Shown one piece after another: positions 10,816 to 63,860 of a stretch of DNA of 64,000 bases (position 1 is the first letter of the stretch; each line of letters opens with the position of its first letter). Source of the stretch: Microglena sp. YARC (lineage: Eukaryota > Chlorophyta > Chlorophyceae > Chlamydomonadales > Chlamydomonadaceae); the NCBI GenBank assembly GCA_022414725.1, contig CM039466.1, forward strand, positions 33,607,174 to 33,671,173, read 5' to 3'. Both the position numbers and the translations under genes were made by a program. Below the pieces are notes generated by a model. The model was not told where the DNA came from. It saw only the letters and a list, made by a program, of their open reading frames with translations, and made no database searches.

Positions 10816-10911
10816 CTGCTCTTTCAGCACAGACAATGTTTGTTCTTGTTTAAGAAGCGCTTGCTCCTTCTTTATGAGGACCAGCTCCTTCTCGGCTAAC
10901 TCAGCTCTGAT
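10816..10911 (-). CDS. Internal exon encoding a coiled coil
   Basis: A 32-codon exon with acceptor ctgctgcag and donor GTGAGCACC, phase 0 at both ends. It encodes a Lys/Glu/Gln/Leu heptad-like helix beginning IRAELAEKELVLIKKEQ. No stop or shift is present. The host gene is unknown; the exon at 14161-14452 on the same strand is also charged, but its donor phase is 1 and it would not join directly. The acceptor with the first codons is repeated three more times upstream (junctions near 11013, 11115 and 11217). Confidence 0.6.
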
Positions 10912-11235
10912 CTGCAGCAGTGGAATGAAAGAAGGTTCAGACAAGTCCTATGCAGCGAGACAGTTGGCCGACGTGCCAGGCTTCAATGTTTAACTAACTA
11001 ACTCAGCTCTGATCTGCAGCAGTGGAGTGAAAGAAGGTTCAGACAAGTCCTATGCAGCGAGACAGTTGGCTCACGTGCCAGGCTTCAATGTTTAACTAAC
11101 TAACTCAGCTCTGATCTGCAGCAGTGGAGTGAAAGAAGGTTCAGACAAGTCCTATGCAGCGAGACAGTTGGCTGACGTGCCAGGCTTCAATGTTTAACTA
11201 ACTAACTCAGCTCTGATCTGCAGCAGTGGAGTGAA
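10901..11235. repeat. 102-bp tandem array of a splice-acceptor region
   Basis: Units start at 10901, 11003, 11105 and 11207. Read on the minus strand each carries ctgctgcag followed by ATCAGAGCTGAGTTAG, the acceptor and first codons of the exon at 10816-10911. The rest of the unit resembles the GC-hairpin family (agtcctatgcagcg...gacagttggctgacgtg). Confidence 0.9.
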
Positions 11236-11388
11236 AGTGAAAGACGTGTGAAAGAGGTTACAGAGCAGGACTTTTGTCTTCCATTGATTGCAGGACTCAT
11301 ACACTACAAGTTGCTGCAGTACAACTAATTTCCTTCCATTTCTCCTCTCATCTGATTAACAGCCGTGGAGTGAAAGAAGGTTCAGACA

Positions 11389-11605
11389 AGTCCTGTGCAG
11401 CGTCGCAAGCAACGCGGAAAATTGGCAGAGTGTGTTGGCAATGGAACGCAAGGTATCAACAATGGAGCTGACCGAAACCAGTTAGTTATGAGACAGTTGG
11501 CTGACGTGTCAGGCTTCAATTTTTTTGTTGGACGGTCAAACGTACAACGGGGTAAGCCTGGGAGCTCCCGTCCCCCAGAAGGGGGGCTCCGCCAAAAATA
11601 TCACG
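11389..11605 (-). repeat. Dispersed GC-hairpin element
   Basis: Reads caagtcctgtgcagcgtcgcaag at one end and the cccccagaaggggg hairpin at the other. This is one of the better preserved copies. Confidence 0.7.
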
Positions 11606-11655
11606 AGTACTTCACAATACAGATGCAACAAGTCAGCTCTGATCTTAGTTAGTTG

Positions 11656-11805
11656 TTACAGTCCAGGGGTAGACCAAATAGGCTAATGGGACTCGCCCAA
11701 CCATGACAGGAGGGGCTTTATCGAAAAACACTGATGAACTGAACCCCAAACAATCGTTTTACAGAAGGGGGCCCTGAGTTTGTGCTACAGTGAAAATTGA
11801 TCTGC
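11656..11805 (+). mobile_element. SINE-like repeat (ACAGTCCAGGGGTAG family)
   Basis: Contains acagtccaggggtagaccaaataggct...gggactcgccc...ctgaaccccaaacaatcg. Other copies: 21960-22195 (-), 27535-27640 (-), 43862-43968 and 61665-61810. Confidence 0.6.
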
Positions 11806-11879
11806 AACATTGGAGTGAGAGAAGTGGGCATCAGGGACAAGTCAAGTCTGACCACCAGGGGACCGTGTGAGCATGTGTG

Positions 11880-12490
11880 AAGGCGTAAGTGCAGGTTTGT
11901 GCATGTGTGTGTGTGTGAAGGTGTAGGTTTGTGTGTGTGTGTGAGCGTGTGTGTAGGTGTAGGTGTAGGTGTAGATTTTTGTGTGTGTGGGGGGGGGTGT
12001 GGGTGTGGGTGTGTGTACCTTGGGGTACCCTACTATTTCCTATTTCCTATTTACTAGAAGAGCCACCAGGGAAAAGTCCTGGGTGTGTCGCAAGGAATGC
12101 GGAAAGTTGGCGAAGAGTGTTGGCTATCGGAATTGAGTGCAGCAGACCGAAGCCAGGGTTTACGACAGGGCCAGGGACCAGGGTTTCTTGTGGTCGTGTC
12201 GGTCGGACGGACGGACAGCGGGGTGGCCCTGGGGGCTCCTGCCCCCTAGAAGGGGGGGCTCCACCACAAAACATGAGCACCTCACGATAGAGATTACACA
12301 AGTCAGTGATAGCACCTCACAATAGAGAGATCACATGGCAATGAAGTGATGATGATGAGAATGATGATGATGAGAATTACATTTTGAGAATGATGATGAG
12401 AATGATGATGAATGATGATGATGAGAATGATGATGAGAATGATGATGATGAGAATTACATGAGAGTGATGATGATGAGAATTACATTTTT
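11880..12490. repeat. GT-rich tract, GC-hairpin element and (GAT/GAA)n tract
   Basis: (GT)n-like sequence spans 11895-12015. A GC-hairpin element copy in reverse orientation spans about 12059-12280. A GAT-rich tract follows at 12345-12490. Its flank (12490-12545) matches 47250-47310, which is also joined to an (ATC)n tract, so this is a dispersed repeat with a trinucleotide tail. Confidence 0.7.
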
Positions 12491-12704
12491 CCTGGTGCCC
12501 TACTGGACTTCAAATGTGCCTGCACCTTGACGGAGCCAAGGGGGACTTAACAAAGTGTGCAGGATGAAACGCACAAGATGCAGTGAATAGAGGTAGAGAA
12601 GCAGTATCCCTGGAGCAACTCGTGCCTCTGCCTATATTGTCCCAAACCCAATCCTAAATCCTAATAATTCCTGGAACTGGAAGAGTACCAGGCAATTGGG
12701 GGCA

Positions 12705-12830: not shown

Positions 12831-12892
12831 TATGTGTGTCCGGGTCTTACATAATGTTGAAATTGTGCATATGAATGTTGTATTCACACAAC

Positions 12893-14660: not shown

Positions 14661-14668
14661 AAATAGTC

Positions 14669-18512: not shown

Positions 18513-21500
18513 GCTGTGAACCCAGTGTTGCCGTATGACAGCAGCCTACAGGCCCAGGTGGGGGTCGTGCCTTCAGCAGGGCCCCCTGTGGAACTCCCAG
18601 AATGGAAGCCCCCAATCTCCAGAGCTTTTGCCATCACCAAACGAATCTCCCAGGCAGAGAATGTGCATCACCTTCAACAAGTGCTAGCTGACAACTCCGT
18701 GGGCCTGAACGAAATTCATGTTTCAGCAGCTTTTTCTCGGGTGGTTAAGTTGGTCAAGGCTGCAGCCAGGGGTAGGGGCTTGCAGGCTGCAGGCACACGC
18801 CTGCTGTACTTCCAACTTCTCCCTGATCTTTCCAGCCTCGCTGTTCTCCACCTTGACAAACTGTCAGCACGGAGTGTGTCAACTATAGTTCACAGCTTGG
18901 GAGTTTTAGAGTATATGGACCATGAGCTGGCCGCTGAGCTGGAGCGGAGGGCAGAGCCCATGCTGTGGGACTTTTCAACCCAGGGGTTGGCCAACACCAT
19001 GTGGGGCTTCGCCAAGCTAGACCACCGTCCTTCCCCGCTCTGGATGGCCGCCTTCCTAGCCATCTGCTTGTCAAGCCCGTGTCTCGCTAGCTTCAAGCCC
19101 CAGGAAATGTCCTCCCTCCTGTGGTCCCTAGTCAAGATCAAGTTCAAGGTCCGAAGTGAGAAGTTGGAGGAAGTGCTCGTAGTGGTACAGCAGCAGCTAG
19201 ATGAGTACAGCTCCCAGAGCCTGACCATGATCGTGTATTCCCTCGCTTGCTGTGAGCACCAGCCTGGTGAGGCTTGGCTGGCAGACTTCGCAACGCAGGT
19301 GGTTGGTCCTAAGTTGCGCAGCTTCACTCCCCAGGGGCTGACTCAGACGCTGTGGGCGCTGAGTAAGACAGGCTTTGTCGCAGATGCAGCGTTCAAGTCT
19401 GCCGTGCTGATACGCGTGGATCAGCAGTTGAAGCAGTTCAATAGCACTGACCAAGCCACTGTCCTGTATGCCTTTGCTCAGCTGCAGATACAGCCAGGTC
19501 CAGCGATCCTAAACAAGCTACAGATGGCTAGCTTTGGAGACATGTGGGGCATGGGCGCACACGATGTAACCGCCATCATTTGGTCCTTTGCCAAGTTAGG
19601 CTACGTGCCTAGGCGCAAATGGCTGAGCCGCACTGTTAGCGTCCTGTACTCACACCTTCCCACCCTGAAGCCCAAGGAGCTGGTCATGACCATCTGGGCC
19701 CTTGCTCGATACAACTTGCGACCACCAGCACAGTTCATGATCGCCTTCCGCCATCGGCTCGATGTATTAGCTGGAGAATTCCTCCCGCAGGAAATAGCAA
19801 ACACCATGTGGGCCCTCGCCCGATTTGGCTACTACCCATCTAGAGCACTGCTGGCGGAGTTCTTCATGGCGACTAACAACAGGTGACATAAGGAAGGGAT
19901 AGCAGTTTTTTTTTTTCCACTACAAAACGATCACTACTTATGACCCCGTTTTGGCCCCATTTGCCGCAATTTGTTTTTGCCCTAAAAGCCATTAAAAGCT
20001 ATAATTGCTACAAAAAGCTACAAAAAGCTATGACAAGCTGCAAAATCTTTAAAAAACTATACACACGCTGTCCCTGGAGGAGGCATAAAACCATAGAGCT
20101 AGGAAAAACACACTTTCAGATTTGAAAATAAGTCCTGAGAGATAGTACATGCTGTGAACTGGGAGGGCAAGTGTTGCGTTTTCATTTCAATATCTCCAGC
20201 TTGACCAAGGATCAATATGTTTTCAATAATCGTACTTGGTATTTGACCATCCAGTTGCATTGCATTCTTTGCGGGCAAGCTGGCTAGTAAAAGAATCAGT
20301 AAGTGTTGCATGTAATTTTAATCCCTCCAGCTTGACCAAGGACTGATATTTTCCAATGATCTTACCTGGTATTTGTCCATCCTGTTGTCTTGCATTCTTT
20401 GGGGTCACTCATATTTCTTGAAAGACGCCCATACAATCAAATTATTCCTCGTTGTGCAACACGACAGGATAACCCGGAAGGGGGAAGGGTGGGAAGTTCC
20501 TCCCACGGATGACATCAAGCGACACTTCAGGGTAGCAAGAACTCCTCAGTATCTCAAAGAATATGAGTGCATCCTACCGTTGGAGAATGGGGTACTGTCC
20601 TTCAAGGCGATGGAGTTTTCTTTTCACAGCATACACACTCCCCCTTGCAGGCTGTCGTCCTTCAAAGCGATGGAGTGAAGCCACATCCATCCTCCTTCAA
20701 AGCGATAGATTTTTCTTCACAACATACACACTCCCCCTTGCAGGCTGTCGTCCTTCAAAGCGATGGAGTGAAGCCACATCCATCCTCCTTCAAAGCGATA
20801 GATTTTTCTTCACAATATACACACTCCCCCTTGCAGGCTGTCGTCCTTCAAAGCGATGGAGTTGAGCCACATCCATCCTCCTTGAAAGCGATAGAGTTTC
20901 CTTCACAACATACACACTCCCCCTTGCAGGCTGTCGTCTTTCAAGGCCATGGAGCTAAGCCACATGATATGGGCCCTGGCAAGTGTGAGCCACATGCGAC
21001 TGACAGTCGATCGCCAGTGGTTGGACGAGTTCATGAAGTCTACTTTCCACAAGATGAGTGAATTCAGTCCGCAGGGGCTAAACAACACCATCTGGGCAAT
21101 GTCAAAACTCAAGGTAGACCCGACCCCAGCTTGGCTGTACTGCTACTGTACTGCTTGCCGCCAGCAGCTCACAGCAGGCAGCCTCAGCGCTCTGGACTTG
21201 GGCCAGATCATTTCCAGCCTCAGGGATCTCAGTATGAACAAGCAGCTTCATAAGGTGAGCGTTCAATTGGTGGGGTGAAGACATGATTCTTCTGGAGCCA
21301 GAGGGCTATGCCCTTTCTATTTCTATTAAAGGCTATGCCCCCCTTTATAAAGGGCATTGGCCCCCCTTTTCTTATTAGGGCCCTAACGGGTTTGGCCCTG
21401 AGGGCCTTAGGTGAGTATTAAGGGGTTAGGGCATAGCCCTAACTGGCCCAGAAGAATCCTGTCTTCACCCAGTTTAACTCGAATTACATTAGCCAGGCCC

Positions 21501-28047: not shown

Positions 28048-28514
28048 AAATAAACAAAAAAAACAATCGTGCCCACGTCTCCATGGTCAGTGTACACCTC
28101 GTAAGCAAGAGGTGCCTCAAGGTGCCTTCTCCTCACCCAGGAATGATCATATAATGATATAAACGTGGCCCGGAAAGACCCCTCCTTGACGCTGTGGAGC
28201 GGGCTTGTCTTGGGCCAACAATGGCCTGTCGATTGACCATGTTATGTGCTTGGGGCCTTTGCCCACAAGATACCCGGAAAATAAAATCAAGGAAGCCTGG
28301 GCAGCAACGGAAACTGCTAGAATGGAGAAATACTGCCAGAAACTGCCAGAATGGAGAAATACTCAGACTGAGTCACTCTTCAATGATTGCACTCAACCTG
28401 CTAGAAACTGCCAGAATGGAGAAATAATCAGCCCAAGTCACTCATCATTGATCGCCCTCAACCTTCAACCCTGAACCCATCTAGTTTCTCTCCAGAAATT
28501 GAGCTTGGTCTCTC

Positions 28515-28720
28515 TCCAGAGGCGGTTGCTTGCAGCAGAATGAGTCGACCTGTGGGGTGTGTGAGGTGTGGTTGTGGTGTGTGTGTGTGGTGTGTGTGTG
28601 TGGTGGTCGCTTGCAGCAGAATGAGTTGACCTGTGGTGTGTGTGGTGTGTATGTGGTTATGGTGTTTGGTGTGTGTGTGGCGGTCTCTTGCAGCAGAATG
28701 AGTTGACCTGTGTTGTGTGT

Positions 28721-28767
<47 letters not shown>

Positions 28768-29411
28768 GTGGTGGTGTGTGGTGTGTGTGTGGCGGTCACT
28801 TGTAGGAGAATGAGTCGACCCGTGTGGTGTGTGGTGGTGCGTGTGTGGTTGTGGTGTATGTGTGGCGGTCCCTTGCAAAAGAATTAGTCGACCTGTGTGT
28901 GTGTGTGGTGCGTGTGTGTCTGCGTGGTGCGTGGTTGCGGTGTGTGGTGTGTGTGTGTGGCGGTCCCTTGCAGCAGAATGTGTCGACCTGTGTGGTGTGT
29001 GGTGGTGCGTGTGTGGTGTGTGTGTGTGTGTGGTCGTGTGTGGTTGTGGTGTGTGGTGTGTGTTTGTGGTGTTTGGTCATGGTATGTGGTGTGTGTGTGT
29101 GTGTGTGGCGGTTGCATGCAGCAGAATGAGTGGACCTGTGTGGTGTGCGTGTGCGTGTGGCGTGTGGTCATGGTGTGTGGTGTGTGTGTGTGGTGTGTTG
29201 TGGTGCATGTGTGTCTGTGTGGTGTGTGTGATGCGTGTGTGGGGGTTGCTTGCAGCAGAATGAGTCGACCTGTGTCGTGTGTCGTGGAGGGTGTGTGTGC
29301 GTGGTTGTGGTGTGTGTGTGTGTAGAGTGTGTGGTGTGTGTGTGTGGTGTGTGTGGTGCGTGTGTTGCGGTTGCTTGCAGCAGAATGAGGCGACCTGTGT
29401 GGTGTGTCGTG

Positions 29412-29444
<33 letters not shown>

Positions 29445-29630
29445 GTGCGTGTGTGGCGGTTGCTTGCAGCAGAAATAGTCGACCTGTGTTGTGTGCCGTG
29501 GAGTGTGTGTGTGGTTGTGGTGTGTGTGGTGTGTGTTGCGGTTGCTTGCAGCAGAATGAGGCGACCTGTGTGGTGTGTGTGTGGTGTGTGGGGAGTGTGT
29601 CGTGGTGCGTGTGTGTGTGGTTTGACAGTA
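28515..29630. repeat. GT-rich minisatellite with cttgcagcagaatgagtcg core
   Basis: The core recurs about eleven times at roughly 70-145 bp spacing, separated by (GTGTGGT)n of variable length. The first codon-like flank and cttgcag look like a splice acceptor on the plus strand, but no exon follows. Confidence 0.9.
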
Positions 29631-30465: not shown

Positions 30466-30715
30466 TTTGTCGTGCAAAAGAGTGCACAGAAATACAAGAG
30501 TCGCAAAGAACCTACCCAAATTGGTTGCACTCGCACACTTGCTCTCCATTTGTCCCATCATGGTTGTGCAAAAGAGTGCACAGAAATTCGAGAGTAGCAA
30601 AGAACCTACCCAAATTGGTTGCACTCACACACTTGCTCTCCATTTGTCCCATCGTGGTTGTGCAAAAGAGTGCACAGAAATAAGAGAGTAACAAAGAACC
30701 TACCTAAATTGGTTG
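30466..30715. repeat. 94-bp tandem repeat, three units
   Basis: gtgcaaaagagtgcacag at 30472, 30566 and 30660. Confidence 0.9.
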
Positions 30716-30767
30716 CGCTGGCATACTTGCTCTCTGAGCTGTGTTCAAAAAACCCACAGCCACAGTA

Positions 30768-31115
30768 CAGTCCATAGGCAACCTGCGGGTGGCAACACAA
30801 GCCTTCACATCATTTTTGTATTCCTGCTAGTTTGGTTTGATTTGGGTTGGGCTGGTTTGGTTTGGTTTGGTTTGGCCCAGTCCATAGGCAACCTGCGGGA
30901 GGCAACACAAGCCTTCACATCATTTTTGTATTCCTGTTGGTTTGGTTTGGTTTGGTTTGGCCCAGTCCATAGGCAACCTGTGGGAGGCAACACAAGCCTT
31001 CACATCATTTTTGTATTCCAGTTGGTTTGGTTTGGTTTGATTTGGGTTGGGCTGGTTTGGTTTGGTTTGGTTTGGTTTGGCCCAGTCCATAAGCAACCTG
31101 CAGGTGTCAACACAA
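30768..31115. repeat. Tandem units with (TTTGG)n
   Basis: Four units of ccataggcaacctgcggg...cttcacatcatttttgtattcc, each followed by a (ggttt)n stretch of variable length. Confidence 0.9.
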
Positions 31116-31189
31116 TGATACTACTTAAGTAGTAGAAGGAGAGATAACAGCACCGGCACCAGCCACAACGTCAACCGCTAAAAAACGAG

Positions 31190-32624: not shown

Positions 32625-33075
32625 GCTGCCCTCTGTTGTGGCACGACTTGCCATCACCCACACCACAGCCGCTGTGGTCATGGCTGTGGTCTAGGTCATC
32701 ATGAGCTCTCCTCTGTTGTTGCACGACTTCCAATCACCTACACCTAAGCCACTGTGGTCAAGGCTGTGGTCTGCACCTGGTAATACCTGAGTCGGTGGTC
32801 CAGCGCACTGTGGCTGGTCTTGGTCTTCATGAGCTCTCCTCTGTTGTTGCACGACTCCGTGCATACAGTCAAATAGGCGACAGGCAGACACTTCACGCTG
32901 GGACAGGCCGCATATAATGACCCAGCATTTCCCAATCAACACAATATTACAAGTGAAATACTTATCATTCATAGCAACATCATAGATCAAATATAATTAA
33001 ATTGTAATCCCGCCTTATTGTCTGCCTCCACATGGGCATACAGACGATGGTCAGTCACTTCGAGCTGGGACAGGG
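32625..33075 (-). repeat. Duplicated GNAT-exon-like fragments
   Basis: cgtgcaacaacagaggagagc (minus sense) recurs three times (about 32630, 32715 and 32845). At 33010-33070 the minus strand encodes RLYAHVEADNKAGLQF, a near copy of the end of GNAT exon 4 in which the donor GT is changed to GC. Confidence 0.6.
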
Positions 33076-33231: not shown

Positions 33232-34076
33232 CTTATTGTCTGCCTCCACATGAGCATACATGTTCTTGCTCCCCCACTTCTCCACAGCCCGCTCCATCCC
33301 GGCTTTCATCAGAACCTTGCCTATGCCACTGCCTCGCAGATCCTCCTACAGGATATGGTGTTTGGTGTGTGGCGGCGGTGGTGGTGGTGGGGCGGCAATG
33401 TAAGAGTATATCAAATACTATTATTTATTCACTAATATTAAAGAACATCGCAGATCCTCCAACAGGTGATATCAGCAGTGTTTCTAATTTCAGACTTCTG
33501 TAGGCCACGTTGAGTAGCTACTTGAGCTACTAAAGCCTAATTTCAGGATTGCTGCGTAGCCATTGCCATGCATTGGATGGAAAAGTATCCATGTACGATA
33601 TGTATCGCCTAACGTAATACATTGGATGGAAAGGAACATGTACCATGTACGATATGTATCGCCTTACGTCATACATTGGATGGAAAATAATGTGTACGAT
33701 GTACGATATGTAGCTCCTTACGCCATACATTGGATGGAAAAGAATGTGTACGATGTACGGTTTGTATCGCCATACGTCATCAGTGGATGGAAAGGAATAT
33801 GTACCATGTACAATATGTATCGCCTTACGTCATACATTGGATGGAAAGGAATATGTACCATGTACGATATGTATCGCCTTACATCATACATTGGATGGAA
33901 AGGAATATGTAACATGTACGATTTGTATCGCCTTCTGTCATTCATTGGATGGAAAGGAACACAGCCCACAATATAGAATGTTGAAAATAAGCGCGATCTC
34001 CTCCCAGGGCTATTGGAAAGAAGCCCAGTAATCTCCTCCCAGTAAATTGTACTCATGATAATGTTGATGATGGTGG

Positions 34077-40100: not shown

Positions 40101-43100
40101 CGCAATTTACGCACTTTTCCCAGCCCCCCTGTGGGCGCAAGGCGCAGTTTTTACGCTTTTTGCACTACAAAGCGCAGGCCAATTAGACGTTTGTGCCCTT
40201 TAAGCGCTGACAAATTTGACAGGAAGTAGTACCTTCACTCAATTCTGCCTCTACAGTGTGTCTTCTAATCTTCTTACCACTTGAAACTTACCAGTACCGA
40301 ACGGGGATATTATATCATAATAAAGGTAATGATAACGCCTGGTGGGGCGTGGTGTTAAGGGAGCCCGTCGTACGCGGGTGAGGAGCGGTCTCCTACCTCA
40401 ACTGGACAAGCTACCATCGCAGTTGACGACGACCTGCAATTATATCATATGATATAAAAATAAGAGAATGAGACCTGACCTTGCCGTCCTACCTGTCATA
40501 GACTCTCCTACCTGTATGTCTGATAAAGAACTCTGGGTTCTTGAGCTTGGATACTGCTCTGATACCAACCATGCTACTAAGTTTATCACTAAACACGCCC
40601 AGCATGTTGAATTAGTAAATGGCCTCAGATCGGCTGGATACCGTGTTCACTACGAAGTTATCACCGTTGGAACAACTGGTACTATTCCAACCTCTTTTTT
40701 GACTTCTATGACCACTCTTGGACTTCAAAGATCATGTGCCCTCAAACTGGCGGACACAGTCCACTCCCACACCATCACTAGCTTTCAGAGTATTTTACAG
40801 TGCAGACGCTTTATGGAAGCACACCCCGGGTCGATACCCGGGGACTAGCACACAGACCGTCCCCCCTCTCAGGTTTTGTCTTACCAGCTGTATTGTGCCG
40901 GTGCTTCCCAACCAGGGTGAAAAACCCCCGTATTAAGCTGCACTGGCATGATGTGGCTACGGTGCCTGCGGGTCAGGCATCGGTGGTAATTCTTTTTACT
41001 GAGATGGTCCTACGGTGACTATAGCTAGCTCCGGCTTACGCTATGGTGTCCTTAACTTCACGTCCAGTGAGTAACGGTTCTACACGGATGTAACAATTTC
41101 AATTTCATATGATATCATGTAGGCACGTGTGTCATGCACCGCTTCTAATCTTCTCAACACTAGAAGCGTACCAGTAGGGAACGGCAATAATAAACTATAT
41201 GATATCATGTAAGCATGTAGGCACGTGTGTCATGCACCGCTTCTAATATTTTACCACATGAAGATTACCTGTCTTAGGGAACGGCAATATCAAATGATAT
41301 CACATTGTATTCCTGTCCCAAATTACCAGACATTCGCACAGAGGCAAGCCCCTCTCCATTGGTTCCGGACCAGTGTTTCTTTTTCTCATGTTTGCCCTTA
41401 ATGGCCCTTCAAGCTTCATAAAGCTATAATAGCATTTGAAAGCTATAAAAACACTGATACACTGTCCCTGGAGGAGGCCTAAAACCATCAAGCTAGAAAA
41501 AAAACTTTCAGATTTGAAAAAAATGGGGCTCGGTCCCCTCTCCAATGTAGGGAACGGAAATATGATATCATGTCATCATATGATATCATTTGACGCCGGC
41601 AGTCTGATTAGGCCAAATTTACCAATTGGTCAACGTCATTTGATATTCTTGTCCCAACTTACCAGACATTCACACAGAGGCAAGCCCCTTACCAATTGAG
41701 GCTTACCAGTAGGGAACAGCAATATTATATCATATTCTTTTCCGGTCCCAACTGACCAGACATTCACACAGAGGCAAGCCCCTTGAAGCTTCTTACCACT
41801 TGAAGCGTACCAGTGCGACAAAACTGTATCATATTATAATCCTGTCCCAACTTACCAGACATTCACACAGAGGCAAGCCCCGCTCTGAAGTGCGTGGGAG
41901 CTGTCGTGAGGAAGTGCGTTGCTTAAGAGATAACACCTCCTTCTCGGCAAACTGACGCTTGTACGAGCCGACATAGCGCGAGTGGTCATCCTGAAAATGG
42001 GTGCATGGTGTGGTGTGGTGTGGTGGTGCATGGTGGTTGTTTGGTGTGTGGTGGTGTGTGGTGGTTAGGTGTGTGGTGTTGTTTGGTTGTTTGGTGTGTG
42101 GTGGTGTGTGGTGGTTCGGTGGGTCCTGGTGTGTGGTGGCGTGTGGTGGTTAGGTGTGCGGTGGTGTGTGGTGGTTTGGTGTGTGGTGGTTTGGTGTGTG
42201 GTGGTTTGGTGCGTGGTGGTTTGGTGGGTGGTTGTGTGGTGGGTGGAGCTGTTGGGAGGAAGTGAGCTGCTTTAGAGACGACACCTCCTTCTCGGCAAAC
42301 TGACGCTTGTACGACCCAACATAGCGAGAGTGGTCATCCTGCAAGTGGGTGTGTGGTGAGGTGTGGTGTGGTGGTGCATGGTGGTTGTTTGGTGTGTGGT
42401 GGTGGGTGGTGGTTAGGTGTGTGGTGGTGTCGGGAGGAACTGAGCTGCTTTAGAGACAACACCTTCTCGCCAAACTGACGCTTGTACGAGCCGACATAGC
42501 GAGAGTGAGCATCCTGCAAGTGGGTGCATGGTGTGGTGTGGTGTGGTGTGGTGGTGCATGGTGGTGGTTTGGTGTGTGGTGGTTTGGTGTGTGGTGGTGG
42601 GTGGTGGTGGGTGGTGGTCAGGTGTGTGGTGGTGTAGGGAGAAAGTGAGCTGCTTTAGAGACAACACCTCCATCTCGGCAAAGTAACGCTTGTACGTCCC
42701 AACATAGCGAGAGTGGTCATCCTGCAAGTGGGTGTGTGGTGTGGTGTGGTGGTGCATGGTGGTGGTTTGGTGTGTGGTGGTTGAGCTTGAGCTTCTACAC
42801 AGCAGGTGCGAAGGAGAGCACTAGGCGCCTAGGTTGTGCTGCATGCATGCAAAGCTTCTTTGGTTTGCCCAAACTACAAGGCACCGGTTCAAAGGACTGC
42901 ACACTGATATTTGGAGACCCCCCCCCCAACACACACACGACCCCACGTGTTCTGGACATCTTGCCGTCACAAAAAGCAATTCGTCATGTGCCATGTAAGA
43001 CGACATCGACAACATCTAAGCTACCGCCAATTTGCTAATGTGAGGAATGAGCTCACGAGAGTGCGCAACTTGATCACCTCGTAGTATGCTTCGGATCTCA

Positions 43101-45944: not shown

Positions 45945-47329
45945 CTAGTTAGCCACTGCCACCATTGGGAAGTGAAAGGTTGGCCCACAGCTTGCACACT
46001 TCAAATCCTTTTTCTCACCAAGTTTAGTATCATTAGCAGCAGTTGCATCAGATCTCACAGCATCCCATGCTGCAATGGGGTCTGTCCCCTTAGTAGTCTC
46101 GAATTTTCTCACGAGAGCATCAATCATATCCTCAACATCATCATACTCAGCACACAAAGCCTCCGTCTCAGCAGGAGAAATCTGCTCATCAACGAAAGCC
46201 GCCGCCAGGTGTGCCTCCTGGTGAGAAGCCAGGGGTTTGCCCCCATTAAAGTAGTGACGGATGAGGTCCAGGGCCTGAGGCAGGCACTGCCTACCCAAGT
46301 AAATCTTCTTGTTGATACGACCAGGGCGGATGAGAGCAGGGTCCAGCTTCTCAGGATGGTTGGTAGTCATTACGACAATACGGCCAGGCCTGTACAAGAA
46401 GATTGGGAGTAGTGTTAAATATAAGATGCCAAGGAGGGGAGTGTGGCTCTAGGTGGGGTGGGGAGGGTGGGTGGGTTGGGGTGGGTGGGTTGAGGGGTAG
46501 GGGTTGAGGGGTAGGGGGGGTGCGTGGGTGGGGGTGGGTGGGGGGGTGTGGGGGGGGGGCAGCAGGTATGAAGGTATATCGGCCAATGAAGGAACATCGG
46601 CCAAATAAGGTACATGGACATCTATGGATTGGTAGAAGCAATACTCACGTGTCGACCACACCATCAAGGCAGTTGAGCAGTCCTGCAAGATTAAGAGCAT
46701 TCTCCTTTGCAAATATATCCACCCAGCTTGAGGCATCTGCTCCAGAAGACTTGGCAGCATCCACAGGGCTGCTAGAGCTTTTGTTTTCTCCCTTCTTATC
46801 AGCACCACCCTCGTCCACGAGGCTTTTAGGGTCACCCTTTCCGCTCTTCTCTTCCAAGTTCTTCTTGGAAGCAGCATAAGCAGCAAAAGCTGCTTTCAAG
46901 TCCAAGTCAGAGGTCCCTTGCGCACCACGTGTGTGAACAACAGAGCTAGCAGCATCAACGTCCTCCATCACAAATATAGCCTTCTTGAAGCTCATCTCAG
47001 CAGTGCTGCTCTTATCCTCACCACAGCCGGCAATCTTTAGCCTCAGGTCCATCATCAGATCAAACAACTCCTGGTTGGTCTGGATCTTCGCAAGAGAGAT
47101 GTTGATGATGTGGCGCTTGGTGTGATGGGCAAGAGCCTTGATGAAAGAGGTCTGGAGGGAGGAAAGGAGAGGAGATGGAATCAGAAGGGATGCAAGATGA
47201 TTAACTAGGAAAACTTTAAAAGGACAGATCGGCACATATATGTTTCGTGATGTTCAGAAGTCCCCCTTGAATCCGTCAAGCTGCGGGCACATTTGGAGTC
47301 CAGTAGGACACCAGGGAAAATGGCATCAC

Positions 47330-47383
<54 letters not shown>

Positions 47384-48898
47384 AGGTTGCAAGTTATGCC
47401 AACAAATAACCAGAGGTACTGAACTCTTCATGAAATCAGGACTGGCCCATGGGGTTACTAAACACTATTTTGAAAATTGTCAACACATTGGGAGACAGGG
47501 CCACCCCATCTTCTCCTAGTGAGGGGGACACAGTATGATCCGTAGGGAATGGAAATATGATATCATGTGATGCCGGCAGTCTGACTAGGCTAACGTTAAC
47601 ATTTATATACAATATCATATGATGCAGTTTGTATAATATCATACTCGCCTTTGGTCTACATCATACGATGTTCCGGTCCCTAGTGATCAGTAGATAAGAC
47701 AGCATGTGATAAGTATGTACTAGGGCATATTATGTGTCGCTCACCTTGCCAGTGCCAGGAGGGCCATGCAGTAGGAATCCAAGCTTTTGGGGATACCCGT
47801 GAATTGCAAACTTCCCTTGCTTGTTCTCAAAGGCATTGACAAGATTAAGAACAGACTCCTTCTCAGGAATGAAGAGGGATCCAAATGTGCGCTCCTCTCC
47901 AAGCCTGCAAGCAGCAATCAAAGTTAACTAAATTCAATCCAACTCAAATTCATAAAATCCAAATCTATTAAATGCATACGATTCACGGAAACGCAATTCG
48001 ATTTGATGACATTACATTTCTGACAAGAAGCTCTCCGAAAGATCTCTGAAAATACAAATAAGCCTCTGAAAACAAGCTCTATGAAAATATGGCGATCCCA
48101 ACCTGATTCCAGCTTACTTGTATCGCTTGTAGAGTGCAGGAGCCAATGCCTTGGCCGCCTCTGAAGTAAGGCTGCCGAGCGTCTTGACGGCGATGTACAT
48201 GTACCTCGAAAGGTCTGCCTTCTTGGCCTGCTCCTTGTTCCATTCCTCCAGAACCTTCTGCAAGAAGGCTTCCACCTTAGTACTGCTGCAGGCCCTCAGC
48301 CTGAATTCAGTGGTCACTGACGTCACAAGAATATCCTCGGACTTATCAACCTCCCGTGACAGTTCCACTCCGTTCTCCAGCAGGACAAAGACACCATCTG
48401 GAGGGCTAGCCATATGGCCAAACTTGTCCACCATCGTGCCTTGGCCGTCATCGTTAACATCGTCCCAATCTGAAATTCCAGAGGAAGACATGAAAGAGGA
48501 GGAGGCCGCTCCATTCTTCACCTCCTTTCTTGTCTTCTTGGCCTGCACCTCGGCGTTCTTCCACAGAAGAGTCTTGTGAGGCAGGTACCTGACAAGGGTA
48601 GGGGGGGGTAGGAAGGGAGAGGGGATGGGGCGGGGGTGGGGTGGGTAGGAGGAGGGGGTTGGTGGGGGGGAGGGTTGGGGGGGTATGTGCGTGTGGTGGT
48701 GGTGGTGGTGGTGGTGGTGGGGGGGTAGTAAGAAGTATTCAAATTATTGTTTGATCACTTTGGTGGCTTAATGAGGATTCTTGGATTTCAGTTTCATCGA
48801 ACACTCTGTTGTGTAGATAGGGAGTATGTCTAGTTGTCCACCTTTACCTCACACAACTTCATCACCTGCATCAACAGCTTCCCTACTCTTGCTGCCAC

Positions 48899-48948
<50 letters not shown>

Positions 48949-49389
48949 TATGGTATACAGTATACGGTATACATACATACAAGCCAACCTATGCATGTCT
49001 GCCACAAGCCCCACACACTTCTCACGCTGTACAACTTACTTGTTTATGTAGTGAAGGATGCCTTGCTGGATGGATGCATTCATGGTCATCTCCTCAGTGT
49101 CCATCCACCAGGCTGAGGTGTGTGTGACGCTGATGATGCGAGTGTAGCCATTGAAACGGAACATCCCCGCCAGCCTCGCAGTATGCTGCTGTGCGTAAGC
49201 CATGAGGAGGGGGATGAGCAGCATGAGGAGGGTTTCAATGGGCAGCCCACCAAATCTCTTTCTTAGGAGCAGCTGTGCAAAAGCTGATACCAAGTTTGGG
49301 TTGTTTACAGATGTTTCGTTTGATCCTGGCAGCTCAGTCGACATGGCAGCGGAGTCGCTGCACGAGGCGGGCGGTAGGACCTCCTCCAT
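45945..49389 (-). CDS. BCS1-like AAA ATPase (mitochondrial-type), five exons
   Basis: Minus-strand exons: 49389-49040, 48588-48118, 47904-47745, 47151-46649 and 46389-45945 (stop TAG), all GT-AG with matching phases; 642 aa. ATG at 49389 is the first in frame. A membrane segment lies at about residues 52-66 ([15 protein letters not shown]). The AAA module has Walker A GPPGTGK at 321-327 (ending exactly at an exon border), Walker [12 protein letters not shown] with acidic 390-391, sensor-1 RIVVMTTNH near 498-506, and LIRPGRI with candidate arginine finger 516/519. An Ala/Lys/Ser-rich insert (about 400-470) precedes [12 protein letters not shown]-terminal membrane anchor plus AAA domain is the BCS1/plant AATP1 layout; BCS1 moves the Rieske protein across the inner mitochondrial membrane. 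Which paralogue this is cannot be told. Introns hold (CAT)n, poly-A and (TA)n tracts. Confidence 0.87.
47323..47382. repeat. (CAT)n microsatellite
   Basis: About 20 CAT units in BCS1-like intron 3. It is joined to a dispersed repeat (47250-47310) that has the same neighbour at 12490-12545. Confidence 0.95.
47543..47682. mobile_element. AT-palindromic MITE (GGACCGG family)
   Basis: Complete copy from tagggaatgg to ccggtccctа-type end. Flanks atgatccg and gtgatcag agree at 6 of 8. It lies in BCS1-like intron 3. Confidence 0.75.
48898..48952. repeat. Poly-A and (TA)n tract
   Basis: About 29 A followed by about 12 TA units, in BCS1-like intron 1. Confidence 0.95.
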
Positions 49390-52800: not shown

Positions 52801-52910
52801 TTGTTCTTGACATCACAGAGTTGTCAGCGTGTAGCAATCTGCGTGATCTACGCCTGCCTACGCAACTTCAAGACACACTGCTTACAAAACTTCAGGACAA
52901 CACAGCATAA
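49839..52910 (+). CDS. F-box-like leucine-rich repeat protein, two exons
   Basis: Exon 1 is 49839-50099 (87 codons from ATG, donor GTACAT). Exon 2 is 51555-52910 (acceptor ccctgcag, stop TAA), phase 0, 538 aa; a small exon between them cannot be excluded. Residues 24-62 (PEALLKFFDSETRGTWRLVC) look like an F-box. Exon 2 has an LRR-like start, an Asp/Ser/Ala/Gly acidic repeat (about 51700-51885), then some 14 LRRs of 23-24 residues with core NLHTLDLS.C.LQDITALSAC. F-box/LRR proteins of this kind usually select substrates for SCF ubiquitin ligases; that role is inferred. The intron holds a GC-hairpin element and a hAT-like MITE. More LRR units follow in frame beyond the stop. Confidence 0.75.
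50830..51035 (+). repeat. Dispersed GC-hairpin element
   Basis: Starts tttttggcagagccccctc and ends gacgcataggacttgt. Among the best preserved copies. Confidence 0.7.
51256..51453. mobile_element. hAT-like MITE (CAGGGTA family), 7/8 duplication
   Basis: 198 bp between ctatgcct (51248-51255) and ctatgcca (51454-51461), in the intron of the F-box/LRR gene. Confidence 0.85.
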
Positions 52911-59264: not shown

Positions 59265-59545
59265 TAGCTCCACTCATCAAAAGTCCGAGCACGATGTCGA
59301 CCAATGAAAAAGTCACGAATTAGTACATGATCACAGCTCCAAAATATGGCCAGAAGCTCCTCTCACCACAAGTCCAAGTACGTTGTTGCCCAATGAAAAA
59401 GTCGCGAGTTGATGCATGATCACAGCTCCAAAATCTGGCCAGAAGCAATCGGTGTAATTGGTACAATCTGCCGTACGCAATCGGTGCTATCGGTGCAATC
59501 TTCTGCATTCAATCGGTGCAATCTGCCGTACGCTGCAAGTTCATT
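59265..59545. repeat. 84-bp duplication and short tcggtgcaatc repeats
   Basis: caatgaaaaagtc..gatcacagctccaaaat..ggccagaagc occurs at about 59303 and 59388. Gtacaatctgccgtacgc and tcggtgcaatc units follow. Confidence 0.85.
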
Positions 59546-59639
59546 TACTTGCTGCCAGCGGATGCAATGGAGTAGATGCCAACCTACAAGAGTGGGGGAG
59601 TTGGGGTCAGGGGTGGTTGGGGTGGGGAAGACAGCGAGT

Positions 59640-60400
59640 AGGGCGCGCAGGGCTTAGGCCTATGGCGCCACTTTTACGTAAGGGCAACGACGCTTTCGGC
59701 GGATTTTATCTTCCATACTGCATCATAGCAAGAGTACTTGGTCTCAACTTTAATTGCGTCTTCTCAGACAGCTCCATGTCAAAGGCCGGGCTCGGTGGTG
59801 GAGCGAGATCGGAACTCCGGTCGGAGCCCGGCTGGTGATCTTTTCCCGGTATGTGATGTTCAAATGGTTAAGTCATCGGACCAAGCTGCAAGCTTTGTCT
59901 AGGTAGCCACGAAGTATACTTGGGGGATGCATAGGGTACACCTACATGTAGGGGGGAGGCTCTGGCTAGGCCTCATGGGCACCATGAGCACTCCCTACAT
60001 AGGCAAGCCTTAATGGGGGTGCCTAGGCAGTGTCATGTGGCATATATCTGCAAGTACATGGCACATGGTGCACACCTTGCAGCTCTACCTCATATGGATG
60101 TGTACTCCATGTATCCCCAAACATGCCACATGGGCATTCAACCATAGCTTGCAACTTGGTCCGTTCACTTGTACGCTTTTAAGTTTCACCCTTGGTTTGT
60201 GTGTGTAATGTGAACAGCCTATTTACATCAAATTTTGGGCATGGGAATACAAGGAGCACCCAGCAAAAGGATGGCCATGCACCACATCATTAAATTACTT
60301 GTAAAAGGGCCCAAATGCAGCCCATACACAATGTGATGAATCCATCTTCACATGAGATATACAAAAATAAACAAACACGGGCTTAAACCTTGGGGACCCT
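59640..60400 (+). mobile_element. Unclassified element: C-terminal coding stub plus 3' tail (copy B)
   Basis: Plus-strand copy of the element at 9290-10030. The coding end (about 59690-59838) keeps DAFGGFYLPY...MSKAGLGG but is shifted by one base near its end. The tail includes the GGACCAAG inverted blocks (59878 and 60160) and a stretch matching 9300-9500 (tattaaattacttgtaaaaggnc). Confidence 0.6.
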
Positions 60401-60404
60401 AGAG

Positions 60405-60860
60405 CAGCCAAATTTCTGGTTGAAGCTATGCAACCAAGTTCAATTTCATTACATGCAAATATGCAAGGCCTAAGACAAGCCCTGACCAGGGGACTTCAAC
60501 CTCGACAGGACAAACTTGAAACTTGAAAACCTGAACACAGACTTTTACCCCCCCACACACCACCACCATCATGGTGCTCAGAAAGACCCTGGTTCATCTC
60601 CTTCGAAAAAAAACCTGCCCTCCACCCCACATTTGGGGGTCTCCATGAAAAGCGATTTGCAACTGTCTGCTGGCTTCTTCTCAGCAACTAGGTTCTTTTC
60701 AGCTACCAGCAGCAGCTACCCTGGCTAGCTACCCAGCCCAACCTAGCGCTTTTGGAAGATGACATAATCGTCTTTCTGGTACTGTTGAATTCTTAGGGCT
60801 TAGCCTAGTGGCTGGCTCAGGGAGCTGCCTAGAAGCTGCTGCTCGTAGCTGAGGAGAAAA
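60405..60860. mobile_element. Hairpin retroposon tail and AGGCAGCTCC MITE
   Basis: 60405-60455 is a plus-strand hairpin retroposon end (gcagccaaatttctggttgaagc, then atgcaaccaagttcaa). 60665-60860 is a MITE related to 14480-14660, with cagctaccagcagcagct on the left and gggagctgcctagaagct on the right. Confidence 0.6.
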
Positions 60861-60934
60861 GCTATGGTCCATGGAAAGTGATTCAAACCTGTCCGCTGCC
60901 TTCAAAGGTGGTACATGTCGTGCAAGTGCTAAAT

Positions 60935-61025
60935 TATTGGTGGTTGGCCCCAGTGCAAGCAAACGGGCAGGCCCCCTGAACCTCACTCCCAGTCTCGCGC
61001 ATAATATGGCGTACTATGTATTTAT
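60935..61025 (+). mobile_element. SINE-like repeat abutting a splice donor
   Basis: Copy of the gccccagtgcaagcaaacggg family. Its tttatt tail ends six bases from the donor of the exon at 61032-61147. A second copy of that exon's 3' end and donor (60888-60918) lies on its other side. Confidence 0.7.
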
Positions 61026-61031
61026 TCGCAC

Positions 61032-62866
61032 CTGTCCGCTGACTTCGAAGGTGACCATGAGGAAGGGGGAGCCATTGGGGCTGTCTTCAACTGAGACGAA
61101 TTTGATCATTTCGGGAGCCAGGTTGCCCATCTTAGAAATGTCGGTAGCTGCAGTGGAGTAGGGTGGGTAAGGGACTAAGGGGGGTGCAGAGAGGGGTTGG
61201 GAGGGGTGAGGTTGAGGGGGTGATTCTTCTGTTTGGTTCTTGTGTGTGTGGGGGGGGTGTGTGTGGGGGGGGGGGGAGGTGGCAGGCTGACGATATTTCA
61301 GGCCCAGGCCAGGTCAAGCTGGGATATTTTAGGGGCAGGCTGATGATATTTAGACTGCACTCTGAGGTCAGCTGATAGTGAGTGATTTGGTTAAGTGGTT
61401 CAGGACAGGCTAACAGGAATTCAGTGGTTTGGGACAGTGGTTGAAAGGCGAAGAGGAATTCAGTGGTTTGGGACAGTGGTTGACAGGCTAACAGGAATTC
61501 AGTGGTTAGGAACAGTGATTCAGGGATTCAGGACAGTGCTAACAGGGATTTTGGGATTCCTCTACGTCCCCTCCTGCAACAACTGGTGGACACCACCCAA
61601 CTGCACAATCTTTCCATCAAACCCTGTAGCACTGACGTAAGGAACCATCGTGTATGCTGTGACAGTCCGGGTGTAGCCATACAGGCTATAGGGACTGGAC
61701 CGGCCATGATATCAGGCAGGGATGTAACGGGGGGAAAATGGTGAACTGAACCCCAAATAATTGTTTGACCGACGAAGCGCCCTGCCTTCGCGCTACAGTG
61801 ACAATTTAATTATACAAACGGCTTCTTACCATATTTTTGCCTTTCCCATCTCCTCCCACCCTCACCCTCCTCCCACCCAAACCTTGCACCCACTCACCGT
61901 CATCTCCTTTAAGGGTCAAGTCGCGGTCAACAATGAACTGAAGGAACTCTGGTGCTTCGGGGTTGGAGACATCATAGACGAGGAAGCCACCCTGGCGCTC
62001 AAGGCCCACAGTGGCGTAGGTGCAGCCACCCAGCTCAAACACCTCCATCGCCTCGGGCTCAGGACCTGCGGGAATAAACAACCATGGCCATCAACAGGTT
62101 AGAAAGTAGGGGGGTAGGGCTGTTAAAATTACAACAGTCCATTCACAGGTCAGGGGACAGGGCTGTTGAAATTACATCATGCCATCGACAGTTCAGAAGG
62201 CAGGGCTGTTACAATTACAACAGGCCATCGACAGGACAGGGGGCAGGGCCGTTGAAATTTTATCATGCCATCGACAGTTCAGAAGGCAGGGCTGTTGCAA
62301 TTACAACAGTCGATTGACAGGTCAGGGGTCAGGGCTGTTCAAAACTATAACAGGCCATCAACAGGGTAGTACCTACCCCCCCCCCCCCCCCCCCCCCCCC
62401 ACTACCCCCCTCGCCTACACACACACATCTTCTCCCCTTCCCACACACACCCGCACGCACCAGCATTATCTGAACGGCTATCAAGGGCCACCTCATCACG
62501 GTCGCAGTTGAAGCATGCCGATGCGTTGATGTCAGCTGCAATGATCTTCTCAAACTCATCGGTGCTGTCGTAGACGACCTGGAAAAATGATTTGTTCGCG
62601 ATAACATTATTTTCTGGAAAATTGATGTGCACTGCCAAAGACGGTGAGCAGCCAAATTGCTGGCCGAAGCTATGTAACCAAGTTCAAGTAGACGACCTGC
62701 GATTAGCAGCTTAGTGTATGCAGGTGGCTAGGCTAGGCTGCCTCTAGGATGGAATATGTAACCAGACCAACTAGACCAGAAGGCTGGTGGAGAACCCAAA
62801 ACATTCTGAGAGGAAGAAAAAGTTAGGATTACAGAAATATATACTGAGAGGGGGGGGGAGGTAGAG

Positions 62867-62953
<87 letters not shown>

Positions 62954-63476
62954 CCAGAAGAGATGTCATGTTCAACTTGAAAGTGAGTTATTCACTCCCA
63001 ACCACCATGCAGTACCATGTGAGAACATAAGGCTCACGGTCAGTATTGCCTAGCTCACTCCCTACCACCATGCAGTACTAACTCCCAACCACCATGCAAT
63101 ACCATGCGAGAACATAAAGCCCACGATCACTCTGTGCATCTCTTACCTGTCCATCCTTAGCTCTGATGATGGAGAAAGAGCGAGCGCCATATGCATAGAT
63201 CTTGTTGTAGGGGCCCTAAACAAGAAAGAGCACATCGGGAAATCAGCAGGTAGTCAGGTTTTGAGTGCAGACATAAATATTGTCATAGGGGCCCTAATCG
63301 AGAAAGCACATCGGGAAATCAGCAGGTAGTCAGGTTTTGAGCGCAGGCTGAACCAGGTAATCTAATTGCAACCACTCCACGTATCTCACCTGCTCAAGGA
63401 ATCCCTTGCTTGTGTCGTATCCATTGGCCAGTCCAGACAGCGGGTCCATGTTAAGCCTTGCAAGCTTCTTGTCGTT
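61032..63476 (-). CDS. Choice-of-anchor-I type protein, five internal exons
   Basis: Minus-strand exons are 63476-63390, 63215-63147, 62578-62461, 62065-61898 and 61147-61032, with GT-AG borders and phases 0, 0, 1, 1, 0 that fit at each junction. The joined protein reads DPLSGLANGYDTSKG, then IYAYGARSFSIIRAKDGQ, VVYDSTDEFEKIIA, FNCDRDEVALDSRSDNA and GPEPEAMEVFELGGCTYATV. GLERQGGFLVYDVSNPEAPE and NLAPEMIKFVSVEDSPNGSP then FEVSGQ follow. This order matches the repeated-blade domain of choice-of-anchor-I proteins, found in extracellular or surface proteins of bacteria and eukaryotes. The 5' and 3' ends of the gene are not seen (the 5' end may lie beyond 64000). Several junctions have tandem copies, and a retroposon sits in the acceptor of the third exon. 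Confidence 0.8.
61160..61535. repeat. G-rich tract and gggacagtgg tandem units
   Basis: G homopolymers at 61249-61276, then three units of ggaattcagtggtttgggacagtgg (61410-61520), in the intron between the last two exons. Confidence 0.85.
61665..61810 (+). mobile_element. SINE-like repeat (ACAGTCCAGGGGTAG family)
   Basis: acagtccgggtgtagccatacaggct...actgaaccccaaataattgtttgacc. It lies in the same intron. Confidence 0.6.
62090..62345. repeat. About 60-bp tandem repeat, four units
   Basis: cagggctgttgaaattac..catcgacagg recurs at about 62120, 62155, 62210, 62245, 62290 and 62325, just upstream (minus sense) of the exon at 62065. Confidence 0.85.
62582..62687 (+). mobile_element. Hairpin retroposon inserted at a 3' splice site
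   Basis: 106 bp between perfect 12-bp copies GTAGACGACCTG (62570-62581 and 62688-62699). In the gene's sense the duplicated word is CAGGTCGTCTAC, so both flanks carry the same CAG acceptor. The insert brings its own T-rich tract (atcatttttc) before the proximal acceptor. Confidence 0.9.
62868..62952. repeat. (AG)n microsatellite
   Basis: Two AG runs with a ggtag break, followed by tandem ccaaccaccatgcagtacc units (62995-63110). Confidence 0.95.
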
Positions 63477-63860
63477 CTATCATGAAGTGGAGTGAGTAAA
63501 GTAGAGTAAGTGAAGTGGTGTAATATAAGTTCAGTGGTGTGAAAGTTGGGAAGCAAGCAAGTGAGCTGAGCGACACATTCAAGCCTTGCAATCTTGTTGT
63601 CATCCTATCATGAAGTGGTGTGAGAGAAGTGGTGTGAGCAAAGTAGAGTGAGTGAAGTGGTGTAATATAAGTTCAGTGGTGTGAAAGTTGGGAAGCAAGC
63701 AAGTAAGCGGAGCGACACATTCAAGCCTTGCAAGCTTGTCATCTGATCATGAAGTGGTGCGAGTAAAGTGGTGTGAGTGAATTAGTGTGAGTGAAGTGGT
63801 GAAATATAAGTAAAGTGGTGTGAAAGTTGCGAAGCAAGCAAGTGAGCTGTGCGACATATT
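63477..63860. repeat. About 130-bp tandem units carrying an exon acceptor
   Basis: Each unit has aagtggtgtgagtgaag-type sequence and, on the minus strand, cttcatgatag + GATGACAACAAGATTGCAAG. This is a copy of the acceptor and first codons of the exon at 63476. Junctions: 63476 (real), 63604 and 63742. Confidence 0.88.

What the first reader, a model, noticed from the sequence alone, without database searches (positions are those of the whole stretch)
10816..63860. Exon-intron junctions are tandemly amplified next to exons of four genes
At least nine arrays in this window are not random satellites. Their unit spans a real splice junction (several exon codons plus the adjacent intron), with the copies extending into the intron and only the innermost joined to the full exon. 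Cases: coiled-coil exon acceptor x4 (102 bp), OPR exon 2 acceptor x4 (93 bp), GNAT exon 2 acceptor x4 and donor x4, GNAT exon 3 acceptor about x14 and donor about x12, choice-of-anchor exon acceptors x3 and x2, and an exon donor x2. The genes are unrelated, so the cause should be general, such as slippage or break repair at junctions, or a process tied to splicing or transcription. I know of no described system with this pattern.
Basis: partly seen in the sequence, partly recalled or inferred. Interest (0 to 1): 0.9.

Follow-up and report, generated by a model that had tools for sequence, protein, structure and literature searches.

The report
Algal introns duplicate their exon edges
In a green alga whose DNA is packed with tandem repeats, many repeat arrays swallow the edge of an exon together with its splice site, probably because duplication strikes almost anywhere and only the copy touching the exon has to keep working.

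Summary
In the GNAT gene every junction from exon 2 to exon 6 (9 of 10 tested; only the exon 1 donor is single) has extra copies of exon edge plus splice site on its intron side, 2 to 20 copies in all. The same occurs in chaperonin genes on other contigs. Over curated and predicted exons, 36 of 115 usable junctions have a local copy. Using only the exon-touching copies joins GNAT, choice-of-anchor, OPR and two chaperonin genes into open frames.

A junction-directed mechanism is not needed, though not excluded. TRF covers 43% of 273 kb here. Junctions exceed same-intron interior about twofold (36/115 against 17.2 expected; outside the window 24/79 against 12.6); TRF arrays give 1.0 to 1.9-fold. 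Position-blind simulations give 1.45 to 1.91-fold with strong insertion turnover and 0.79 to 1.12 with weak or none. Splice dinucleotides in the extra copies are mostly intact (103 of 120). Best reading: rampant, nearly position-blind tandem duplication, tolerated at exon edges.

The parts
10896..11237 (-). tandem array, 102-bp unit x3.4, crossing the acceptor of the coiled-coil exon 10816-10911
   Evidence: TRF; sequence read; 3 upstream copies
20598..20965 (+). tandem array, 93-bp unit x3.9, crossing the acceptor of OPR/FAST_1-like exon 2 (20930-21254)
   Evidence: FAST_1 Pfam hit in exon 1; three exons join into one open frame of 953 codons
43078..43302 (-). GNAT exon 1; donor not duplicated
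   Evidence: end placed by homologues, P0001 runs on to 43057
41897..42781 (-). GNAT exon 2 acceptor array, 4 copies of acceptor plus exon start
   Evidence: merged TRF array; copies at 42742, 42534, 42359, 42011
41856..41990 (-). GNAT exon 2, the copy joined to the rest of the protein
41312..41885 (-). GNAT exon 2 donor copies x4 (spacings 99, 94, 336)
37790..39056 (-). GNAT exon 3 acceptor array, 13 copies, spacings 75-133 bp
37658..37804 (-). GNAT exon 3
36620..37669 (-). GNAT exon 3 donor array, 36-bp unit within larger 167-203-bp units, 20 in-register donors with the exon's own
33232..33345 (-). GNAT exon 4; acceptor copy at 33474 (lacks AG), donor copy at 33043 (GC in place of GT)
30768..31118 (-). 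GNAT exon 5 acceptor copies x4
   Evidence: TRF 30853-31045
30704..30782 (-). GNAT exon 5
30472..30734 (-). GNAT exon 5 donor array, 94-bp unit x2.8
28521..29621 (-). GNAT exon 6 acceptor array, 11 copies of CACAG plus about 29 bp of exon between CA-rich spacers of changing length
28461..28549 (-). GNAT exon 6 (last)
63485..63864 (-). choice-of-anchor exon acceptor array, 139-bp unit x2.7, next to exon 63390-63476
63194..63346 (-). choice-of-anchor exon acceptor copy x2, next to exon 63147-63215
   Evidence: below the threshold
59545..62578 (-). choice-of-anchor I gene, last four exons (62461-62578, 61898-62065, 61032-61147, 59545-59583); none of these junctions has a copy at 77% identity
   Evidence: Pfam; gene model
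46019..49224 (-). AAA ATPase gene used as a low-repeat comparison: 0 of 8 usable junctions duplicated
   Evidence: Pfam

Best explanation
This is ordinary tandem duplication at an extraordinary rate, acting almost blindly along genes. A stretch of tens to a few hundred bp is duplicated head to tail, then expanded. If it lies inside an exon, selection usually removes it. If it lies inside an intron, nothing happens. If it happens to cover an exon edge, the gene also survives, because the copy that still touches the full exon keeps the reading frame and the other copies become part of the intron. The outer copies then decay as intron, while the exon-side copy is held by selection, which is why copies of exon edges remain recognisable. 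Shown: the anatomy, the generality, which copy is coding, the unequal decay, the repeat load, and that the junction excess is modest. Inferred: the molecular route of duplication (slippage, unequal exchange or break repair), that the modest excess comes from turnover of intron interiors, and that outer copies are skipped by the spliceosome.
For: Repeat load: TRF covers 27.8% of the window, 43.4% of a 273-kb contiguous region that includes it, 40.6% with period 20 or more, and 8 to 45% of eight chaperonin loci on contigs C1-C5. Counting each array once, the interior of the same introns is duplicated at 11-12% of sites, and at 34% if every copy counts, against 29% at junctions. Arrays found by TRF: 14 of 68 touch a junction against 13.9 expected from uniform placement. 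Donors and acceptors are hit alike: 18/56 and 18/59. Genes with few repeats have no junction copies: AAA 0/8, CCT8 0/8, CCT3 0/6. Position-blind simulation: in the 4 of 7 insertion settings with strong insertion turnover the centred ratio is 1.45 to 1.91. Copies differ more on the intron side (17.7%) than on the exon side (11.0%), as expected if one exon copy is constrained. Joined exon-proximal copies give open frames in two chaperonin genes.
Against: The junction excess is significant against same-intron controls: 36/115 against 17.2, ratio 2.09, gene bootstrap 1.46-2.84; outside the window 24/79 against 12.6, ratio 1.90 (1.31-2.69). It persists in intron-only windows (1.57 to 2.81 at 77% identity; 1.06 to 1.92 at 87-90%). 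With more genes TRF arrays touching a junction are 23 of 98 against 17.6, 14.3 or 11.8 (p 0.08, 0.01, 0.001). Simulations with weak insertion (3 of 7 insertion settings) give centred ratios of 0.88 to 1.12, and those without insertion (2 settings) 0.79 and 0.81; the setting that reaches 1.91 has only 15% raw interior duplication against 34% observed, and the strong-turnover setting nearest to 34% (42%) gives 1.45. Splice bases in the copies are kept at 221/240 against 1282/1440 exon-side and 988/1200 intron-side, a hint of selection. Distances between copies are multiples of 3 slightly too often: 41 of 95.
Confidence: 0.66

Rival explanations
1. A mutational process is drawn to exon-intron junctions (for example breaks or R-loops at transcribed junctions, or recombination between CAG|GT-like motifs), so junctions are duplicated more often than the rest of the intron.
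For: About twofold excess at junctions over same-intron controls, falling with distance: 24% at 40-60 bp, 18% at 60-100, 12% at 100-200, 8.5% at 200-400. GNAT 8/10 against 2.2 expected and CCT5 6/8 against 2.6 (unmasked).
Against: The rate rises again at 400-800 bp (15%) before falling to 8%. Against control windows 100-400 bp away the centred ratio is 1.39 (20/82 against 14.4) and the intron-only ratio 1.00 (10/57 against 10.0). Position-blind simulations with strong turnover give up to 1.9-fold. The TRF count in the first sample equals chance. Donors and acceptors, which share little sequence, are hit alike. No consistent microhomology in 26 two-copy arrays.
Confidence: 0.18
2. Extra splice sites are kept by selection because they make recognition of short exons in long repeat-filled introns more reliable, or provide alternative exon ends.
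For: 103 of 120 copies keep both splice nucleotides; 92.1% of splice bases kept against 89.0% of exon-side and 82.3% of intron-side bases. The predicted protein P0001 includes three exon-2-like segments. Slight excess of multiples of 3 between copies.
Against: Copies within an array are not independent, so the retention figure is weak; per-junction means are 0.81 intact against 0.83 (exon-side identity squared) and 0.68 (intron-side). Genes with few repeats manage without copies. P0001 may be only a gene-finder's model. Some copies have lost GT or AG (GNAT exon 4).
Confidence: 0.1
3. The arrays are assembly artefacts.
For: Long tandem repeats are hard to assemble; no reads could be examined here, so no call speaks for it directly.
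Against: Many copies differ from each other and units vary in length, whereas misassembly usually repeats identical sequence; the pattern is found on four large contigs (C1, C2, C3, C5); P0001 holds divergent exon 2 copies too, though it may come from the same assembly.
Confidence: 0.05

Closest known systems
Intronic tandem repeats biased to intron ends in Chlamydomonas reinhardtii and Volvox carteri (PMC3887541; abstract and passages seen)
   Same: Green algae; introns carry the highest repeat density of all regions; more repeats near the intron-exon junctions.
   Different: There the repeats are described by motif and by tenths of intron length; the passages seen do not describe units that contain exon sequence and the splice site. 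Here units are tens to hundreds of bp and about 3 in 10 sampled junctions have such copies.
Intron gain by tandem genomic duplication of an AGGT-bearing exonic segment (reviewed in PMC3443670; passages seen)
   Same: Tandem duplication of a short genic segment copies splice-site sequence; duplicated exon sequence becomes intron.
   Different: There a duplication inside an exon makes a new intron. Here the unit covers an existing junction and lengthens an existing intron. Whether the introns themselves once arose that way was not tested.
Tandem exon duplication (recalled)
   Same: Exon sequence with splice sites repeated in tandem.
   Different: In the cases measured mostly one exon edge is repeated, without the other splice site of that exon. 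GNAT exon 2 comes close.
Minisatellites / VNTRs (recalled)
   Same: Head-to-tail units of tens to hundreds of bp, nested higher-order units.
   Different: Defined usually without reference to genes; here the end unit is pinned to a coding exon.

Membership tests
Intronic minisatellite | head-to-tail tandem units of about 10-100 bp or more | tested here: met
   TRF: 48 merged arrays of period 20 or more in the window; e.g. 36, 93, 94, 102 bp units
Intronic minisatellite | copy number varies between individuals | not testable with these tools
   one assembly only
Intron gain by tandem genomic duplication | a new intron arises between two copies of one exonic AGGT segment | tested here: inconclusive
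   the copies found lie inside introns whose flanking exons join into open frames without them, but searched the intron side only, and donor and acceptor of one intron were not compared with each other
Tandem exon duplication | whole exon with both splice sites repeated | tested here: not met
   median exon part matching the nearest copy is 35 bp over 34 junctions, ungapped; the GNAT exon 2 acceptor copies and donor copies form separate rows
Introner elements / transposon-derived introns | the same element dispersed over many genes | tested here: inconclusive
   a genome search with 10816-11800 returned the coiled-coil array only at its own place, while bases from about 565 on matched dispersed copies; but only 40 of 8375 candidates were scored, and one array only was tested
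Junction-directed amplification | arrays at junctions clearly more often than position-blind duplication gives | tested here: inconclusive
   observed ratio 1.90-2.09; position-blind simulations 0.72-1.91 depending on window and turnover

The most novel reading that the evidence does not exclude
Exon-intron junctions in this alga are true hot spots of tandem amplification, at donors and acceptors alike, through breaks or template switches at junctions of transcribed genes, so that introns grow from their ends and leave rows of intact, potentially usable splice sites; selection may then keep some of them as redundant sites.
Probability: 0.2. Interest if true: 0.85.

Novelty: new variant of a known kind. 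Interest (0 to 1): 0.5.

Why it matters
If about 3 in 10 splice junctions carry nearby copies of themselves, most with intact splice dinucleotides, this alga is a natural stress test of splice-site choice: the spliceosome must pick the exon-touching site among up to about 20 similar ones. It also shows how introns can lengthen without harm, and warns that gene finders may splice extra copies into proteins, as seems to have happened in the EukProt model of this GNAT.

Tried and rejected
Junction-specific cause: tested with several kinds of window and by arrays; results both ways are in the report. The fixed intron-only window first suggested that the excess was only better preservation of exon copies (10/62 against 9.3); a wider choice of window brought the excess back, so I dropped that as the sole explanation and turned to turnover of intron interiors, which simulations partly support.

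A first uncollapsed comparison (copies at 13 of 36 junctions in GNAT, anchor and OPR; interior 20-51%) was misleading, because long arrays count many times in the interior; it was replaced by the collapsed control.

Microhomology at two-copy arrays (26 arrays): from -34 to +46 bases, no clear rule. Frame: 16 of 34 nearest and 41 of 95 successive distances are multiples of 3, weak. Decoy inactivation: splice dinucleotides are not lost faster than neighbours.

Rows dropped before counts: 114 curated junctions in 12 genes plus two added to CCT3 make 116; 112 were usable (the rest had low-complexity windows). In some searches, by my count, 130 junctions bordered a defined intron or segment and 115 were usable for the centred window; terminal junctions and the coiled-coil exon have no defined intron and fell out. 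Of the 15 ab initio exons with score 20 or more listed I used 10 and dropped five by eye (repeat-like sequence or doubtful splice sites). Uncertain chaperonin junctions were left out by eye. The gene finder was trained on genes of the window and then on its own strong exons. CCT subunit names, 'OPR' and 'ARM-repeat-like' are my recall; the calls show only PF00118 and FAST_1. Simulation parameters were set by hand.

Failed or unanswered: the genome search was busy. Paper searches timed out, so only three were answered; I make no claim that the pattern is absent from print. One search had a faulty argument. One search was a filing of this report that did not fit the form.
Full report
WHAT THE WINDOW IS. 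The window is C5:33607174-33671173 of a 568-Mb eukaryotic assembly of 2390 contigs. Proteins place it among chlamydomonadalean green algae: the GNAT protein matches Chlamydomonas eustigma and Dunaliella salina at 53% and 47% identity. One EukProt protein, P0001, is evidently of the same species: it is 100% identical over exon 1. The species was not identified; the 532-Mb size quoted for Chlamydomonas ICE-L in PMC11228838 (passages seen) is near but is no identification.

The GNAT gene runs on the minus strand from 43302 to 28461 in six exons. Copies of the junction sequence were counted with a query across each splice site: exon 2 acceptor 4 and donor 4; exon 3 acceptor 13; exon 3 donor 23 hits, of which 20 carry an in-register donor; exon 4 acceptor 2 and donor 2; exon 5 acceptor 4 and donor 3; exon 6 acceptor 11; exon 1 donor 1, that is, no extra copy. 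So 9 of 10 junctions are repeated (8 of 10 at the stricter threshold). In these eight the exon part matching the nearest copy is 11 to 94 bp, ungapped. The coiled-coil and OPR acceptor arrays are as described. The choice-of-anchor I gene (Pfam PF22494) was modelled as 11 exons, its 5' end not included, with one open frame of 498 codons and GT-AG introns. An ab initio finder recovered ten of these eleven exons in one chain, with some extra exons, at least one of them a repeat copy.

WHICH COPY IS THE EXON. Joining only the exon-proximal copies gives open frames in GNAT (aligned with homologues), the choice-of-anchor gene, OPR (953 codons) and in the sampled exons of CCT5 and CCT6. The EukProt model P0001 instead contains three exon-2-like segments in a row, which the three homologues aligned lack. 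Whether these are spliced in life or a gene-finder's error cannot be told here.

IT IS GENERAL. A Pfam search (PF00118) located chaperonin genes, and eight loci on contigs C1 to C5 were read. The subunit names used here are recalled. Junction copies occur in CCT2, CCT4, CCT5, a CCT5-like gene, CCT6 and CCT7, and not in CCT3 and CCT8. A gene about 80 to 115 kb downstream of the window shows a short exon end with its donor seven times in all at 193-bp spacing. So the pattern belongs to the genome, not to four odd genes.

THE BACKGROUND. TRF covers 27.8% of the window (23.8% with period 20 or more) and 43.4% (40.6%) of 273 kb of contiguous sequence made of the window and 209 kb downstream, including 2000 N. 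Eight chaperonin loci range from 8 to 45%. In such DNA many junctions must lie in arrays.

IS THE JUNCTION SPECIAL? For a fair test each array was counted once: a control site in the intron counts as duplicated only if it is the first (donor-like) or last (acceptor-like) copy. In 12 genes 32 of 112 junctions had a copy on the intron side (30-mer, 77% identity, within 1 kb), against 12.0 expected; five other settings gave 27 to 32% against expectations of 11.5 to 14.4. With matched controls from the same intron: 27/97 against 15.5 after masking dispersed repeats, 14.0 unmasked; against control windows only 100-400 bp away 20/82 against 14.4. With more genes: 36/115 against 17.2, ratio 2.09, gene bootstrap 1.46-2.84; outside the window, which was chosen for its arrays, 24/79 against 12.6, ratio 1.90 (1.31-2.69); donors 18/56, acceptors 18/59. 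Exon-only windows gave 36/119 against 17.8. Intron-only windows gave 27/101 against 14.8 and 30/101 against 13.2, but a fixed intron-only window gave 10/62 against 9.3, and 10/57 against 10.0 with local controls; at 87% identity they gave 15/101 against 10.1 and 18/101 against 9.4. By whole TRF arrays, 14 of 68 touched a junction against 13.9 expected, and in the larger set 23 of 98 against 17.6, 14.3 or 11.8 (p 0.08, 0.01, 0.001), depending on the unit length taken. The excess is therefore real by most measures but only one- to twofold.

CAN POSITION-BLIND DUPLICATION GIVE TWOFOLD? In simulated introns, duplications were placed uniformly and accepted when they covered a junction. Nine settings were run, with parameters set by hand. 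Without insertions (2 settings) the centred ratio was 0.79 and 0.81, and 0.72 to 0.91 over all windows. With weak insertion (3 settings) it was 0.88, 1.09 and 1.12. With strong insertion (4 settings) it was 1.45, 1.53, 1.54 and 1.91, because interior sequence is then younger than the intron ends. The setting giving 1.91 has 15% raw interior duplication, the one giving 1.45 has 42%; observed is 34%. The observed 1.90 to 2.09 is thus at or above the upper edge, and its bootstrap interval (from 1.31 outside the window) reaches down into the range. This shows that a junction preference is not required, not that there is none.

FATE OF THE COPIES. In 36 junctions with 120 copies, divergence is 11.0% on the exon side and 17.7% on the intron side, as expected if one exon copy is constrained. 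Splice bases are kept at 221/240, and 103 of 120 copies keep both. So outer splice sites are not preferentially destroyed; whether they are used is unknown.

MECHANISM. Shown: tandem units, nested expansion (36 bp within 167-203 bp at GNAT exon 3), pinning to the exon, tolerance. Inferred: duplication by slippage, unequal exchange or break repair, and skipping of outer sites. No microhomology rule was found in 26 two-copy arrays.

COMPARISON. Tandem repeats enriched towards intron ends in two green algae are in print (PMC3887541). Tandem genomic duplication as a route to new introns is in print (PMC3443670); here existing introns are lengthened, and I did not test whether they once arose that way. 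I rate this a new variant of a known kind: ordinary duplication, unusual in amount and in how often it carries splice junctions along.

Noticed in passing
window, about 11385-11600, some matches to 11736: A dispersed element: the genome search with 10816-11800 returned about 40 strong matches to this part on many contigs, at 77-88% identity.
   Followed up: no
P0001 (EukProt gene28956-32150_t): The predicted GNAT protein of evidently the same species contains three exon-2-like segments, so annotation of this genome may splice repeat copies into proteins.
   Followed up: partly
L033 (C3:22885900-22893600): A CCT5-like gene whose match needs a frame change between two adjoining pieces near 5800-5900; possibly a decaying duplicate of the CCT5 gene in L032.
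   Followed up: partly
L009 3423-4071: A 24-bp array (TRF about 20 copies) of GTGAGC-like donor motifs directly after a choice-of-anchor exon end.
   Followed up: no
L030 near 4229 (minus orientation): A likely GC-AG intron in the CCT4 gene: an AG|GCAAGT donor fits the reading frame of the next exon.
   Followed up: no
C5 about 33750610-33792000 (143-185 kb of the joined sequence): A long gene, ARM-repeat-like by eye, with several donor-side rows of copies, one short exon end seven times in all at 193-bp spacing.
   Followed up: no
window 51420-52910: A leucine-rich-repeat open frame of 496 codons on the plus strand, a coding tandem repeat.
   Followed up: no
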